A stretch of DNA of 64,000 nucleotides from Thermoleophilaceae bacterium (GTDB lineage: Bacteria > Actinomycetota > Thermoleophilia > Solirubrobacterales > Thermoleophilaceae): the NCBI GenBank assembly GCA_040901445.1, contig JBBDYQ010000025.1, positions 125,925-189,924 on the forward strand. Reading direction: 5' to 3'. Below, one piece after another: positions 2,927 to 17,190 of the stretch. The notes beneath the pieces are model-generated. The model was given only the letters and a program-made list of their open reading frames with translations, was not told the DNA's origin and searched no databases. A program made the translations under genes and the position numbers. The stretch's first letter is position 1, and every line of letters begins with the position of its first letter.

Positions 2927-2944
2927 CCGGGGGCAGGTGCACAC

Positions 2945-4537
2945 ATGCTCCTGCCCTTCCGTGATCCCAAATCCCGCGAGGCCCGGCGCCGCCGGCCGCC
3001 CTACGTCCGCGTAACCGTGGCGGCCGCGTGCATGCTCGGCACGCTCGTCGTGGTCCCGCCCGCGTTCGGCGGCCCCGACGCGCTGAGCATCGCGCGGCGC
3101 GCCTACCACATCGCCAAGCGCGCCGACCGCAAGGTCAGGCATGTCGCTCGCGACGTGAACATGACCTACCGGTCGGAGATCAGGGATGACGCGATCAACT
3201 CGGAGAAGATCGCCGACGGCTCCGTCACCAGCGACGACATTCTCGACGGGACGATCGGCACGTACGACATCGGCGGGGGCGCGGTCGGGGCCGACGCCAT
3301 CGCGGACGGACACGTGGGCGCCGCCGAGATCGGGACCGGCGCCGTGGGCTCCGACGAGATCGCCGATGGCTCGATCGGCAGCCACGACATCGGTGGAGGC
3401 GCAGTCGGCGCCGCCGCCATCGCGGATGGGCACGTGGGCGCCGCCGAGATCGGGACGGGCGCCGTGGGCTCGGATGAGATCGCCGCCAGCGCGGTGGGGG
3501 GCGCGGAGCTGGCCGCCAACGCCGTGAGCTCCTCCAAGCTGCTGGACGGCTCGGTCGCCACCGGCGACCTCGCCGACGACGCCGTGACCGCCGACAAGCT
3601 CGCCGACGACGCCGTCGGCGCCGCCGCTCTCTCCGACGGCTCTGTGGGCTCGGCCGAGATCGCCGACGGCGCGATCTCCACGGCCGACCTCGCCGGCGAC
3701 GCGGTCACCGGCGCGAAGCTGCTCGACGGCACGGTGGCCGCGGCCGACCTGGCGGACGGCTCGGTGACCACCGCGAAGCTGCTCGACGGCACCGTGGGCA
3801 CCGCCGACCTGGCCGACAGCTCGGTGACCACCGCGAAGATCCTCGACGGCGCGGTGCAGACCGCCGACCTCAACGGCGGCGCCGTGACCACCGCCAAGCT
3901 CGCGGACGGCGCCGTGGACTCCGCCGCCATCTTCGACGGTGCCGTGGGCAGCGCGGATCTGCAGAACGGCGGAGTGATGACCGCGGACATCGCCGCCGCC
4001 GCCGTGGACACGGCGCAGCTCGCCAACGGGGCAGTCGAGGGTGCCCAGATCGCCGCGGGCGCCGTCGACTCGTCCGCCATCGCGGACGGCGGCATCGGGC
4101 CGGCCGACCTGGCCGGCTCGGCCGTGACGACCGCGAAGCTCGCCACGGACGCGGTCACCAGCGCGCACATCCTGAACGGCACCATCATCGGCGCCGACAT
4201 CGCCGGAGACGCCATCACCGGAGCCAAGGTTCAGGACGGAAGCCTCGGGGCCGCCGACATCGCCGCCCCCGGCGGCGGCGGCACGCTCGTGGGCTCCGCG
4301 AGCGTGGACGCGCCGGCGCTCGCCGCCGACACCTGCGCGATCGCGGGCACCAACGTGCCCGGAATCCAGGCCGGCGACCGCGTGATCCTCAACGTCGCTC
4401 CCACGCTCGAGAACGGCCTCGTGGCCCAGGCCGTGGCGGCGAGCAGCGCGAACACGCTCGACATCCGCTTCTGCAACACCACGGGCGCGCCGGTCGACGG
4501 CGCCGCCCTCAACCACTCCTACATCGTCATCCGATGA
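2945..4537 (+). CDS. decapeptide-repeat protein in flagellar cluster
   Basis: A 530-residue protein not belonging to any known flagellar family I recognise. An Arg-rich N-terminus and a hydrophobic segment (about 22-44) suggest a signal anchor or secretion signal. Residues 81-440 are 36 uninterrupted ten-residue repeats of the form DG(S/A/T)V-x-(T/S)A-(D/K)-(L/I)-(A/L), spanning 3185-4264 exactly. Such repeats probably fold as a regular beta-solenoid, as in some cell-wall or phage-fibre proteins. A Gly linker leads to a distinct 90-residue C-terminal domain with two cysteines (about 440-530). The start at 2945 directly follows the sigma-28-type promoter. The gene overlaps the next by four bases. 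Inference: an extracellular fibre or adhesin made with late flagellar genes. Confidence 0.8.
   Translation: MLLPFRDPKSREARRRRPPYVRVTVAAACMLGTLVVVPPAFGGPDALSIARRAYHIAKRADRKVRHVARDVNMTYRSEIRDDAINSEKIADGSVTSDDILDGTIGTYDIGGGAVGADAIADGHVGAAEIGTGAVGSDEIADGSIGSHDIGGGAVGAAAIADGHVGAAEIGTGAVGSDEIAASAVGGAELAANAVSSSKLLDGSVATGDLADDAVTADKLADDAVGAAALSDGSVGSAEIADGAISTADLAGDAVTGAKLLDGTVAAADLADGSVTTAKLLDGTVGTADLADSSVTTAKILDGAVQTADLNGGAVTTAKLADGAVDSAAIFDGAVGSADLQNGGVMTADIAAAAVDTAQLANGAVEGAQIAAGAVDSSAIADGGIGPADLAGSAVTTAKLATDAVTSAHILNGTIIGADIAGDAITGAKVQDGSLGAADIAAPGGGGTLVGSASVDAPALAADTCAIAGTNVPGIQAGDRVILNVAPTLENGLVAQAVAASSANTLDIRFCNTTGAPVDGAALNHSYIVIR
3185..4264 (+). repeat. 36 tandem 30-bp coding repeats
   Basis: The DNA is periodic at 30 bp across 1,080 bp, encoding 36 decapeptides without a break. 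One near-identical 150-bp block is duplicated: units 4-6 and 8-10 read GGAVGA(D/A)AIA, DGHVGAAEIG, TGAVGSDEIA in both places. That indicates recent expansion by unequal recombination. Copy number may vary between strains. Confidence 0.95.
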
Positions 4538-13590: not shown

Positions 13591-13635
13591 GCTGTGCCGT
13601 TTCAACCCGAACTATTCGGGTCGAAACGGAACAGC
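13591..13635. terminator. 21-bp hairpin closing the flagellar operon
   Basis: An inverted repeat pairs 13591-13611 with 13615-13635 around a three-base loop, with two internal mismatches. No T-run follows, but the stem is long enough to end transcription. The bases up to 13738 hold nothing else recognisable; an in-frame GTG at 13594 inside the hairpin is unlikely to be a real start. Confidence 0.62.
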
Positions 13636-13738
13636 GAGCGCGCGCACGTTCTCTCTTTGCGCACGGCCGCCGGCTCCCATCCGGTGCACAAGGCACCACG
13701 GCGACCGGAGGTCGTCCCCGTGCACGGGCCGGGTGCCC

Positions 13739-13765
13739 TCAAGCCGGCCCTCGCCCCGCCGATCA
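13739..13765 (+). promoter_or_regulatory. sigma-28-type promoter for glycosyltransferase genes
   Basis: TCAA (13739-13742), 15 bases, GCCGATCA (13758-13765). The bases around both boxes (TCAAGCC and GCCGATCACC) repeat those at 2900. The ATG of the glycosyltransferase is at 13774, only eight bases past the -10, so the transcript would be leaderless or nearly so. Confidence 0.65.
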
Positions 13766-13773
13766 CCAAGTTG

Positions 13774-14949
13774 ATGGACGTCTCCGTCATCGTCCCCCTG
13801 CAGGGAGGCGCCGACCGTGCGCTGCGCTGCTTCGAGGCGCTCGCGGCGCTGCCGCCCGAGCCCTCCCACGAGGTCATCGTGGTGGATGACGCATCGCCCG
13901 ACCTGGCACCGCTGCTCGAGCGCCTGGGCGGCGACGTGACCGTCGTCCGCTCCGAGCGCCGCCTCGGCTTCGCCGGCGCGGCCGCGCTGGGGGCGGAGCG
14001 TGCGAAGGGCCAGATCCTCGCCCTGCTGCGCGACGGGCCGGAGATCGGCCACGGATGGCTCGCGCCGCTGGCGGCCGCGCTGGCAGACCCCGGCGTGTCG
14101 GCCGCCACCAGCGCCGCTCCGCATCCCGTGACGGCCCGCTCACTCGCCCTGCGCAGTTCCGGCGTGGCCGCGCTTTCACGCGCGGCCGGGGCGGGCGAGA
14201 CCCACGAGATGGGCGCGCTGCTGCTGGAGCTGGCCGGAGCCGGGAGGGTGGTGACCGCACCCGAGAGCACCCTGCGCGGACCCGCGCACCGTGCCCCCGC
14301 TGCGCGCCTGGAGCCGGGCACCGAGCCCGAGCTCACCATCGTCGTGCCCACGCTCGACGCCACCTCGGAGCGCCTGCGTCGCTGCGTGGCCGCGGTGCAG
14401 GCCGCCACCGGGGACGCCTACGAGATCGTGATCGTGGACAACGGGGCGCCGCCCCAGGGCTTCACGCCGCCGGTGAACGCCGGCATCCGTGCCGCGCGTG
14501 GTGAGTACGTCGTGATCATGAACGACGACGTGGAGCCGCTCGCGGGCTGGTGGCCGCCGCTGCGCGCCGCGCTGGACGGCGGCGAGGCCTGCGTCTTCCC
14601 GCTCACCGTCGGCGGCAACGAGCGGCGCGACTTCGCGCCCTGGTGCCTGGCCCTGAGCCGCGCCGCGGTCGAGCGCTTCGGCGCCGCCCCCGGCGAGTTC
14701 TACGACCCGGCGATGCGCGTGTGGTTCCAGGACACGGATCTCCACCTCCGTCTCATGGAGGCCGGCGTGCATCCGCGGCTGGTGGAGTCGTCGGAGATCC
14801 GCCACGGCCTCTCGGAGACGCTCACGAGCGACGACCCTGCGCTGCAGGCCTGGATCGAGCAGCAGGTGGCCCGCGACCGCGAGGCGTTCGACGCCAAGCA
14901 CCCCGGCGCGCCACTGCGCGTGATCGAGTTCGAGGTGACACGGGCGTGA
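13774..14949 (+). CDS. tandem-domain family 2 glycosyltransferase
   Basis: A 391-residue protein with two GT2-like (GT-A fold) halves. The first (about 1-170) has VSVIVPL and EVIVVDDASPD but no proper DxD metal motif, so it may be inactive. The second (about 187-391) has LTIVVPTLD, EIVIVDNGAPP and the metal-binding NDD at 250-252, as in rhamnosyl-type GT2 enzymes. It has no membrane segments. Its place between the export operon and flagellin, with its own late-type promoter, suggests it glycosylates flagellin. The start at 13774 is chosen because the domain begins there and the promoter lies just upstream; a longer frame reaches back to 13594. It overlaps the next gene by three bases. Confidence 0.82.
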   Translation: MDVSVIVPLQGGADRALRCFEALAALPPEPSHEVIVVDDASPDLAPLLERLGGDVTVVRSERRLGFAGAAALGAERAKGQILALLRDGPEIGHGWLAPLAAALADPGVSAATSAAPHPVTARSLALRSSGVAALSRAAGAGETHEMGALLLELAGAGRVVTAPESTLRGPAHRAPAARLEPGTEPELTIVVPTLDATSERLRRCVAAVQAATGDAYEIVIVDNGAPPQGFTPPVNAGIRAARGEYVVIMNDDVEPLAGWWPPLRAALDGGEACVFPLTVGGNERRDFAPWCLALSRAAVERFGAAPGEFYDPAMRVWFQDTDLHLRLMEAGVHPRLVESSEIRHGLSETLTSDDPALQAWIEQQVARDREAFDAKHPGAPLRVIEFEVTRA

Positions 14950-16292
14950 TCGCCTTCGCGGCGTGCGTGGCGGACGAGGAGAAGTACGCGCGCTGCGCGG
15001 TGCCCGGCCTGCAGCGCGTCGCCGAGGACGACAGCCTCGTGATGCAGGCCGGCGACCCGGCCTCGATCTTCGATGCCTACAACGAGGTGCTCGACGCGGT
15101 GCGCGGGCGCGACGACCTCGAGGCGCTCGTGCTGCTGCACGAGGACACCGAGATCCTCGATCCCGAGTTCTGCGCCAAGGTGCGCGGGCTGCTGGCGGAC
15201 GACGACGTGGCGGTGGCCGGCGTGGTGGGCGCGCGCGGCGTGCGCGGCCTCGCCTGGTGGGAGGGTCAGTGCTTCGGGCGCGTGGTCGAGACGCGCGGGG
15301 TGATCGACTTCGGCGGCGGCACGCACGAGGTCGAGACGGTGGACGGGCTGATCATGGTGCTCTCCCCCTGGGCGGTTGCCAACCTGCGCTTCGACCACGA
15401 ATGCTTCTCCGGCTTTGACGCCTACGACGCCGACATCTGCTTCCAGGCGCGCGCCGCCGGCCGCAAGGTGCTGGTGGCCCCGCTGGAGGTGGCGCACCGC
15501 CACAGCCGCGAGGGCACCGAGCGCGCCGCCTCCGACGGCGGCAGCTTTGAGCGCAACGACGCAAGGTGGCGCGCCAAGTGGCTCGACCGCGAGGCGGCCG
15601 CGTCACGGGCCGCCGGGGTGGGCGACGCCGACAAGGGCGAGAGCTACTTCGAGTTCGACCGCCCCGAGCTGCGGTCGCTCGTCCCGGCCGCCGCGCGCCG
15701 CGTGCTGGACGTGGGCTGCGGCGCGGGGGCACTGGGCGCCGCGCTCAAGCGGGAGCGCGACGTGGAGGTCATCGGCCTGGAGGGCTTCGAGGACGCCGCG
15801 GCCCGCGCCCGCGGGCGCCTGGACGGCGCACTCTGCATGGACCTCGACGGCGTGGAGGAGCTGCCGTTCGAGCGGGGCGCCTTCGACGCGATCGTGTTCG
15901 GCGACGTGCTCGAGCACCTGCGCGACCCCCACCGGCTGCTGCGGGCGCTGCGCCCGTACCTGGCCCCCGGCGGGGTCATCGTCTGCTCCATCCCCAACGT
16001 CAGGCACTGGACCGTGCTGTTCCCCCTGCTGGTCCAGGACCGCTGGCGCTACGAGGACGCCGGCCTGCTGGATCGCACGCACATCCACTTCTTCACGCTC
16101 GAGGAGATCGGCCACATGCTCGACGAGACGGGGTTCGAGGCCCGGCATGTGGGCGTGAACGACCTGGCGCCGCTGCCAGGCGAGCTCCAGCCGCTCGTGG
16201 ACCTGGCGGTGCGCTTCGGCGGCGAGCGCGCGGAGACGGCCGCGCGCCTCGGCGCGTATCAGTATCTCGTCGTCGCGGGCAGGAAGTCCTAA
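14946..16292 (+). CDS. glycosyltransferase-methyltransferase fusion
   Basis: A 448-residue two-domain enzyme. Residues 1-215 resemble a GT2-like domain of the type found in StrF-like proteins (EALVLLHEDTEILDPEFC at about 59-76; ETVDGLIMVLSPWAV; AHRHSREG). Residues 232-448 are a class I SAM methyltransferase with motif I LDVGCGAGALG (about 254-264), AIVFGDVLEHLRDP and an IPNVRHW loop. Such fusions can add and then O-methylate a sugar, so a methylated flagellin glycan is the natural inference. The GTG at 14946 overlaps the previous stop (GTGA). Its TAA stop forms the first bases of the flagellin promoter. Confidence 0.83.
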   Translation: MIAFAACVADEEKYARCAVPGLQRVAEDDSLVMQAGDPASIFDAYNEVLDAVRGRDDLEALVLLHEDTEILDPEFCAKVRGLLADDDVAVAGVVGARGVRGLAWWEGQCFGRVVETRGVIDFGGGTHEVETVDGLIMVLSPWAVANLRFDHECFSGFDAYDADICFQARAAGRKVLVAPLEVAHRHSREGTERAASDGGSFERNDARWRAKWLDREAAASRAAGVGDADKGESYFEFDRPELRSLVPAAARRVLDVGCGAGALGAALKRERDVEVIGLEGFEDAAARARGRLDGALCMDLDGVEELPFERGAFDAIVFGDVLEHLRDPHRLLRALRPYLAPGGVIVCSIPNVRHWTVLFPLLVQDRWRYEDAGLLDRTHIHFFTLEEIGHMLDETGFEARHVGVNDLAPLPGELQPLVDLAVRFGGERAETAARLGAYQYLVVAGRKS

Positions 16293-16316
16293 AGTCCTGG
16301 CGCGGGGCGCCGATTA
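16290..16316 (+). promoter_or_regulatory. sigma-28 (FliA) promoter of flagellin
   Basis: TAAAGTCC (16290-16297), 11 bases, GCCGATTA (16309-16316): a near-perfect FliA promoter. Its -35 overlaps the stop codon of the methyltransferase fusion. A start site about seven bases downstream would give a flagellin leader of about 60 nt that contains two hairpins. Confidence 0.88.
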
Positions 16317-16328
16317 CCCCGATCACAT

Positions 16329-16381
16329 AGGAAGACAAGGAGTCTTCCTGGGCCAAGCACCAATCATCAAGGAGGATGATT
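16329..16381 (+). promoter_or_regulatory. flagellin leader: two GGA-loop hairpins (CsrA-like)
   Basis: Hairpin 1 pairs 16329-16336 with 16342-16349 (8 bp, perfect) around the loop AAGGA. Hairpin 2 pairs 16362-16368 with 16375-16381 (7 bp, perfect) around AAGGAG, which is the ribosome binding site eight bases before the ATG. ACAAGGA in hairpin 1 matches the CsrA consensus core ACARGGA, and the two GGAs are 32 nt apart, suitable for bridging by one CsrA dimer. This mirrors the arrangement known for hag of Bacillus subtilis. No csrA or fliW gene is in the window. Confidence 0.72.
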
Positions 16382-16383
16382 CA

Positions 16384-17190
16384 ATGGGCCTTCGTATCCA
16401 GAACAACGTTGAGGCGTTCAACGCCCATCGTCAGCTGAACAACACGGCCAACGCGATGGCGAAGTCCATCGAGCGCCTGTCGTCCGGCTACCGCATCAAC
16501 CGCGCTGCCGACGACGCCGCCGGCCTCGCCATCAGCGAGCGGCTGCGCTCGCAGATCCGTGGCCTGGGCCAGGCCCAGCGCAACGCGCAGGACGCCGTCT
16601 CGCTCGTGCAGACGGGTGAGGGTTCGCTGCAGGAGGTTCACTCCATGCTGCAGCGCGTCCGTGAGCTGGCCGTGCAGTACAAGAACGGCTCGCTCTCGTC
16701 CAGCGACCGGACGGCCATCCAGTCGGAGGTCAACCAGCTCGCCAGCGAGGTGGAGCGGATCGGAAGCAGCGCGGAGTTCAACGGCATCAAGGTGCTGAAC
16801 GCCGCGGGCTCGGTCACCTTCCAGGTGGGTGCGAAGGACGGCGAGGTCATCACCGTCTCGACCATCAGCCTCGGTGGGACCGGCGGCGTCGACTCGGGCA
16901 CGTACTGCCTGGTGGCTGCCGACGCGATCTCGCAGATCGACGAGGCGATCGCCAACGTCAGCGCTCAGCGTGCGACGTTCGGCGCGGTGCAGAACCGCCT
17001 CGACCACACGCTCAACAACCTCGCGACCTACCAGGAGAACCTGGTGGCGTCCGAGAGCCGGATCCGGGACGTGGACATGGCCGCGGAGATGGTCACGTTC
17101 ACCAAGTACCAGATCCTGCAGCAGGCCGGCACGGCGATGCTCGCTCAGGCGAACCAGTCGTCTTCCGGTGTGCTGTCTCTCCTGGGCTAA
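16384..17190 (+). CDS. fliC: flagellin
   Basis: A 268-residue filament subunit, the minimal flagellin build. The N-terminal D0/D1 (MGLRIQNNVEAFNAHRQL, SSGYRINRAADDAAGLAI, about 1-140) and C-terminal D1/D0 (ATFGAVQNRLDHTLNNL, ending QANQSSSGVLSLLG) are intact, joined by only about 50 residues instead of D2/D3 domains. The D1 arginine patch near 90-93 matches the TLR5-recognised region of many flagellins. A cysteine at position 175 is unusual for flagellin. CGT and GTT codons are more common than in neighbours, as expected for high expression. Secretion is by the flagellar export system; there is no signal peptide. Confidence 0.95.
   Translation: MGLRIQNNVEAFNAHRQLNNTANAMAKSIERLSSGYRINRAADDAAGLAISERLRSQIRGLGQAQRNAQDAVSLVQTGEGSLQEVHSMLQRVRELAVQYKNGSLSSSDRTAIQSEVNQLASEVERIGSSAEFNGIKVLNAAGSVTFQVGAKDGEVITVSTISLGGTGGVDSGTYCLVAADAISQIDEAIANVSAQRATFGAVQNRLDHTLNNLATYQENLVASESRIRDVDMAAEMVTFTKYQILQQAGTAMLAQANQSSSGVLSLLG

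What the first reader, a model, noticed from the sequence alone, without database searches (positions are those of the whole stretch)
16290..16386. Flagellin leader with two GGA-loop hairpins, layout of CsrA/FliW control
Between a near-perfect FliA promoter and the flagellin ATG lie two perfect hairpins (8 and 7 bp), each with AAGGA in the loop; the second loop is the ribosome binding site. CsrA binds GGA in hairpin loops, and ACAAGGA in the first matches its consensus core. The two GGAs are 32 nt apart, in the range for bridging by one dimer, as known for hag in Bacillus subtilis. I know of no established case of this control in actinobacteria. The prediction needs csrA and fliW in the genome.
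Basis: partly seen in the sequence, partly recalled or inferred. Interest (0 to 1): 0.85.

Follow-up and report, generated by a model that had tools for sequence, protein, structure and literature searches.

The report
CsrA/FliW-type flagellin leader in an actinobacterium
The message for this actinobacterium's flagellum protein starts with two conserved RNA hairpins that look like docking sites for the brake protein CsrA, and its release factor FliW is encoded nearby, so a flagellin control known from Bacillus and Campylobacter very probably also operates in Actinobacteria.

Summary
Between a FliA-type promoter (16290-16316) and the flagellin ATG (16384) lie two perfect hairpins, 8 and 7 bp, each with AAGGA in its loop. 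The GGAs are 32 nt apart and the second loop carries the Shine-Dalgarno. Shuffles give such a pair once in 60,000.

Both refutation tests failed to refute. The genome holds fliW and two csrA genes. flgL, fliW, csrA1 and a second flagellin lie about 24 kb left of the window, and fliA is close by. In 66 leaders of the order the first hairpin is kept through compensatory changes around an almost fixed ANGGA loop. The second hairpin's arms also match better than permuted arms.

A covariance model hit 87 places in 399 genomes of the class, all at flagellin starts. It hit 70 of 80 flagellins not next to fliW-csrA and 0 of 28 directly behind fliW-csrA.

csrA1 carries the FliW-contact residues V51/N55; the stand-alone csrA2 has R55. 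Similar leaders occur elsewhere in the phylum.

Best reading: CsrA1 binds both hairpins and blocks flagellin translation, and FliW relieves it. Binding is untested. A further helix pairing the leader with the start region is tentative. It is a new member of a known kind.

The parts
16290..16316 (+). FliA (sigma-28)-type promoter: TAAAGTCC, 11-nt spacer, GCCGATTA; its first three bases are the stop codon of the upstream gene
   Evidence: GCCGAT is in the consensus of 66 leaders; fliA gene at C25:108268-108945 of the same genome
16329..16349 (+). Hairpin 1 (BS1): 8-bp stem, loop AAGGA (16337-16341), proposed high-affinity CsrA site
   Evidence: RNAalifold finds it unaided on 66 leaders; compensatory changes in 6 of 7 pairs
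16362..16381 (+). Hairpin 2 (BS2): 7-bp stem, loop AAGGAG (16369-16374) holding the Shine-Dalgarno, proposed second CsrA site that blocks the ribosome
   Evidence: arm permutation test z = 7.6, 0 of 10,000
16351..16354 (+). 5' strand (GGCC) of a tentative outer helix that pairs with codons 2-3 and encloses hairpin 2
   Evidence: pair probability 0.74; spacer/start-region complementarity across relatives
16387..16390 (+). 3' strand (GGCC, directly after the ATG) of the tentative outer helix
   Evidence: codon 2-3 synonymous bias
16384..17190 (+). Flagellin gene (268 aa) under this leader

Best explanation
This is the 5' leader of a flagellin mRNA under CsrA/FliW control of the Bacillus hag / Campylobacter flaA kind, in a Thermoleophilia actinobacterium. 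FliA-type promoter activity makes the mRNA. A CsrA dimer, most likely CsrA1 encoded next to fliW, binds the ANGGA loop of hairpin 1, bridges about 32 nt to the Shine-Dalgarno loop of hairpin 2, and blocks ribosome binding. When flagellin is exported, free FliW binds CsrA1 and releases the block; when flagellin accumulates it occupies FliW and the block returns. Shown here: the hairpins, their conservation and covariation, their restriction to flagellin starts, the presence and linkage of csrA1 and fliW, and the FliW-contact residues. Inferred from the known systems: RNA binding, bridging, translational block, FliW antagonism and flagellin feedback. The second flagellin, just behind fliW-csrA1, lacks the hairpins and probably escapes this control.
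For: csrA x2 and fliW x1 in the genome, in the order flgL-fliW-csrA1-flagellin2. Hairpin 1 in 66 leaders: 95.2% of cells paired, 6 of 7 pairs with double-sided change, covariation score 0.454 against 0.177 shuffled and at most 0.091 slid. Loop A-N-G-G-A: A, G, G, A each in 65-66 of 66 rows while stem positions vary. Hairpin 2 arms: z = 7.6 for 64 leaders and 5.7 for 24 distinct left arms. GGA-GGA spacing 21-43 nt in 64 leaders, all inside the published 10-63 nt bridging range (PMC7652899). Covariance model R1: 87 hits with E below 1e-4, all at flagellin starts; 70 of 80 non-adjacent against 0 of 28 fliW-csrA-adjacent flagellins. fliW and flagellin co-occur: 77 genomes with both, 8 with flagellin only, 4 with fliW only, 310 with neither. 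CsrA1 has R44, V51 and N55; V51/N55 are FliW-contact residues (PMC7829508). FliW resembles the FliW of the solved FliW-CsrA complex 5dmb.
Against: No binding, footprint or mutant data. CsrA1 has V at position 4 where the reviewed CsrA has L4 (conservative). SELEX sites mostly had four or fewer contiguous stem pairs, so an 8-bp stem may not be optimal (PMC7652899). Co-occurrence with fliW follows flagella and is therefore not independent evidence. The fliW-linked flagellin lacks the hairpins, so only part of the flagellin pool would be controlled.
Confidence: 0.84

Rival explanations
1. The stand-alone CsrA2 (contig C2, 77 aa), not CsrA1, is the main repressor of this leader, so FliW would not control it directly.
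For: CsrA2 has the RNA-binding residues L4 and R44 and is intact; it is in the same genome.
Against: CsrA2-type genes occur in many genomes of the class without FliW or flagellin: 184 of 399 have CsrA, 81 have FliW. The leader tracks flagellin and fliW. Genus g32 genomes G052, G198, G211 and G393 have one detected csrA and keep the leader; in G052 that csrA lies beside fliW and has N55 (L031).
Confidence: 0.08
2. The hairpins act without CsrA: hairpin 1 protects the 5' end of an abundant mRNA, and hairpin 2 tunes initiation by holding the Shine-Dalgarno.
For: Both are stable hairpins; stabilising 5' hairpins and structured ribosome binding sites are common (general knowledge).
Against: Pure stability would not fix the loop: ANGGA is almost invariant while stem bases change. 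The paralogous flagellin behind fliW-csrA in the same genomes lacks hairpin 1.
Confidence: 0.06
3. Conservation by descent of a promoter-leader block without function of the hairpins.
For: All hits sit ahead of related flagellins within one class.
Against: Compensatory changes in both stems, retention across several families, and GGA-loop hairpins in other classes of the phylum.
Confidence: 0.02

Closest known systems
Campylobacter jejuni flaA leader (CsrA-FliW; PMC4894983)
   Same: Two stem-loops with ANGGA in the loops, the second covering the ribosome binding site, supported by compensatory changes; sigma-28 promoter; fliW in the genome.
   Different: 21 nt between GGAs instead of 32; a third GGA as codon 2, absent here; binding and repression shown there, not here. 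Here a second flagellin without hairpins lies beside fliW-csrA.
Bacillus subtilis hag leader (CsrA-FliW-Hag)
   Same: Two CsrA sites, the second over the Shine-Dalgarno (PMC7652899, PMC8523840); fliW next to csrA.
   Different: Here the hairpin-bearing flagellin is about 40 kb from fliW-csrA, the flagellin beside fliW-csrA lacks the hairpins, and a second csrA without N55 exists.
Clostridioides difficile fliC leader (PMC8523840)
   Same: Predicted BS1 TGACAAGGATGT resembles AGACAAGGAGTC here; BS2 contains the AAGGAGG Shine-Dalgarno-like sequence.
   Different: Different phylum; the sites there were predicted, with genetic support for FliW and CsrA.

Membership tests
CsrA/FliW-controlled flagellin leader (hag/flaA type) | Two GGA sites in hairpin loops of the flagellin 5' leader | tested here: met
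   conserved in relatives
CsrA/FliW-controlled flagellin leader (hag/flaA type) | Second site overlaps the Shine-Dalgarno | tested here: met
   loop AAGGAG 16369-16374, ATG 16384
CsrA/FliW-controlled flagellin leader (hag/flaA type) | Site spacing compatible with one CsrA dimer (10-63 nt) | tested here: met
   32 nt here, 21-43 nt in 64 leaders; range from PMC7652899
CsrA/FliW-controlled flagellin leader (hag/flaA type) | csrA and fliW in the same genome | tested here: met
CsrA/FliW-controlled flagellin leader (hag/flaA type) | CsrA of the FliW-binding kind (V/I51, N55, extended C-terminus) | tested here: met
   CsrA1 has V51 and N55 and 74 residues; residues from PMC7829508. CsrA2 has R55
CsrA/FliW-controlled flagellin leader (hag/flaA type) | CsrA binds the leader and represses translation | not testable with these tools
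   needs gel shift, footprint, reporter
CsrA/FliW-controlled flagellin leader (hag/flaA type) | FliW antagonises CsrA and is itself bound by flagellin | not testable with these tools
   needs binding assays or genetics
Known Rfam RNA family | Match to any of 4227 covariance models | tested here: not met
   no match on the leader loci searched; only one unrelated sub-threshold hit elsewhere

The most novel reading that the evidence does not exclude
In Thermoleophilia the CsrA/FliW leader is a three-helix switch: hairpin 1, the Shine-Dalgarno hairpin, and an outer helix pairing the leader with the first codons (GGGA with UCCC in most relatives, GGCC with GGCC in the window, GGGC with GCCC or GCCC with GGGC elsewhere), which constrains synonymous codons 2-3. 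In addition the flagellins are divided between one pool under CsrA and a hairpin-less flagellin encoded directly behind fliW-csrA that escapes it.
Probability: 0.4. Interest if true: 0.6.

Novelty: new member of a known kind. Interest (0 to 1): 0.46.

Why it matters
CsrA/FliW control of flagellin is known from Bacillota and Campylobacterota; no actinobacterial case was found in the library searched. The evidence points to the same leader architecture across Thermoleophilia and in flagellin leaders of several other lineages of the phylum, which suggests the control is old in Actinomycetota. It gives a concrete, testable RNA target and candidate FliW-dependent CsrA proteins in a phylum where post-transcriptional control by CsrA is hardly studied, and it points to an unexplained stand-alone CsrA in genomes without flagellin.

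Tried and rejected
Rfam: no family fits. A first regular-expression sorting of flagellins into csrA-adjacent and others had errors (the window's own leader landed in the csrA group); five leaders were moved by hand and the main comparison was redone from fliW coordinates, but the codon comparison still rests on the hand-corrected sorting. Idea that only one flagellin class keeps a C-terminal FliW-binding motif: no clear difference between the classes, dropped; the published FliW-flagellin residues were not read (one search failed). Idea that the conserved GGGAC behind hairpin 1 is a third GGA site: not favoured, because it is absent in the window and in Solirubrobacter while complementarity to the start region tends to persist. 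RNAalifold on the whole MSL set with coding sequence gave no usable structure because spacers differ; the outer helix appeared only in the short-spacer subset. FliA-type promoter in the 3-kb loci around flagellin 2: none found by pattern.

Full report
OBSERVATION. A FliA-type promoter TAAAGTCC-N11-GCCGATTA spans 16290-16316. Two perfect hairpins follow: 16329-16349 (8 bp, loop AAGGA) and 16362-16381 (7 bp, loop AAGGAG with the Shine-Dalgarno). The flagellin ATG is at 16384. The GGAs start at 16339 and 16371, 32 nt apart. RNAfold returns these two hairpins, and with coding sequence added both loops stay unpaired with probability about 1. Such a pair arises once in 60,000 dinucleotide shuffles and occurs once in the whole window. 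The transcription start was not determined; about 16322-16326 is inferred from the promoter.

GENOME CONTEXT. The window is part of a 3.54-Mb genome of class Thermoleophilia (the nearest named loci are Thermoleophilaceae and Solirubrobacterales). It holds one fliW (C25:102294-102644, minus) and two csrA genes (C25:102057-102212, minus; C2:191779-191934, minus). On the minus strand the order is a gene ending like flgK, flgL, fliW, csrA1, flagellin 2. The window flagellin is about 40 kb away at C25:142308. A FliA homologue lies at C25:108268-108945. CsrA1 (74 aa) has R44, V51 and N55; V51 and N55 are the FliW-contact residues defined in C. jejuni and N55 also in B. subtilis (PMC7829508). CsrA2 has L4, R44, I51 and R55. 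Every fliW-linked CsrA of the class whose aligned sequence reached residue 55 has N55; so do two from other actinobacteria (L215, L216). Some stand-alone CsrA proteins also have N55 (L205-L207), so the residue does not separate the two kinds perfectly. FliW matches the solved FliW 5dmb/5dmd/5jak and CsrA1 matches solved CsrA chains.

CONSERVATION. Flagellin leaders were collected from relatives. In 66 leaders of the order (alignment A1), RNAalifold, given no structure, returns hairpin 1 alone, 7 pairs, 6 with compensatory changes. Counting: 95.2% of cells paired, 55 double-changed cells, covariation score 0.454 against 0.177 in shuffles and 0.041-0.091 in slid versions. The loop A-N-G-G-A is fixed in 65-66 of 66 rows at the four named positions. 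Hairpin 2 varies in loop length, so it was tested by permuting right arms among genomes with a fixed 5-nt loop: z = 7.6 for 64 leaders and 5.7 for 24 distinct left arms, no permutation of 10,000 reaching the observed value. Arms such as CATC/GATG, TCTC/GAGA, CGTC/GACG, CGAC/GTCG and TAAC/GTTA replace each other. These permutations do not model the tree; the reduction to distinct arms limits but does not remove relatedness.

SPECIFICITY. The covariance model R1 was run on 399 genomes of the class. 87 matches had E below 1e-4, and the next was 1.5e-3. 71 of the 87 end at a listed flagellin start, and the other 16 were fetched and all precede a flagellin. The own genome has one match, this leader. 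Of flagellins not downstream of fliW-csrA in the order, 70 of 80 have a match; of 28 directly downstream of fliW-csrA, none. By eye one of these 28 (G063, L166, outside the order) carries a GGA-loop hairpin too far diverged for the model. Flagellin and fliW co-occur (77 both, 8 flagellin only, 4 fliW only, 310 neither), but this follows the flagellum and is weak as independent evidence. One flagellated genome of the order that is 97% complete lacks fliW (G050), and its flagellin also lacks the hairpins (L018); one case only.

BEYOND THE CLASS. Leaders from other actinobacterial lineages, read and folded, also show GGA-loop hairpins ahead of the flagellin (for example L229 GGGGAGCC-ACGGAT-GGCTCCCC, L231, L238) and in several cases a Shine-Dalgarno hairpin (L250; also L230, which is in the same class but another order). 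Not every leader fits (L239, L244, L251). Nesterenkonia, Arthrobacter and Paeniglutamicibacter genomes contain both fliW and csrA. This part was inspected, not tested statistically.

MECHANISM. By analogy with hag and flaA: CsrA1 binds hairpin 1, bridges to hairpin 2 and blocks the ribosome; FliW frees the message. The spacing fits (10-63 nt, PMC7652899; 21-43 nt in relatives). In C. jejuni the same two-hairpin leader was shown to be bound and repressed (PMC4894983). No step of binding or regulation was tested here.

TENTATIVE THIRD HELIX. In most relatives a GGGAC behind hairpin 1 is complementary to the start region AU-GUCCC. The complement of codon 2 plus one base is in the spacer for 60 of 71 MSL leaders. 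When codon 2 differs, the spacer often differs too: GGCC in the window and three others, GGGC in three of six MAL leaders, GCCC opposite GGGC in many Solirubrobacter leaders. Own pairs exceed swapped pairs (67 against 43 +/- 3), but relatedness inflates this and there are clear exceptions. RNAfold gives probability 0.74 for the window's helix, and RNAalifold finds the helix in the short-spacer subset only. Codon 2 is TCC in 62 of 68 serine cases against 26% in the rest of these genes; codon 3 is CTT in 79 of 95 leucine cases against 3%. CTT is also raised in the csrA-adjacent group (8 of 24), and its last bases lie outside the proposed helix, so a general start-region effect explains at least part of it.

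NOVELTY. The paper library contains no described CsrA/FliW control in Actinobacteria. The actinobacterial flagella survey mentions CsrA and FliW once each, in the list of genes searched (PMC10746217). [quoted passage not shown] Subscription papers are largely not held. I file it as a new member of a known kind.

Noticed in passing
genome contig C2:191779-191934 (L001 1423-1656): A second, stand-alone CsrA (77 aa, R55). In the class 184 of 399 genomes have CsrA but only 81 have FliW, so CsrA without FliW or flagellin is common in these actinobacteria; its targets and antagonist are unknown.
   Followed up: partly
window 2899, 5747, 13738 (+ strand): Further FliA-type promoter matches (CTCAAG/CTAAAG ... 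GCCGATCA): ahead of a secreted repeat protein, ahead of a fliO-like gene, and ahead of a glycosyltransferase-like gene.
   Followed up: no
window about 2942-4537 (+ strand): Predicted secreted protein built of short repeats (like DGSVGSAEIADGAISTADLAGDAV), behind a FliA-type promoter inside the flagellar cluster; possibly a surface or filament-associated protein.
   Followed up: no
window 13594-16292 (+ strand): Glycosyltransferase-like and methyltransferase-like genes directly upstream of the flagellin; possible flagellin glycosylation.
   Followed up: no
codons 2-3 of hairpin-class flagellins; window 16387-16392: Codon 3 is CTT in 79 of 95 leucine cases although CTT is 3% of leucine codons in the rest of these genes; the cause is not fully explained by the proposed helix.
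   Followed up: partly
L061, L069, L071, L072 (Solirubrobacter, Conexibacter): Arrays of several tandem flagellin genes, many with their own copy of the leader; Solirubrobacter deserti (L061), with such an array, is described as non-motile (PMC10722151).
   Followed up: no
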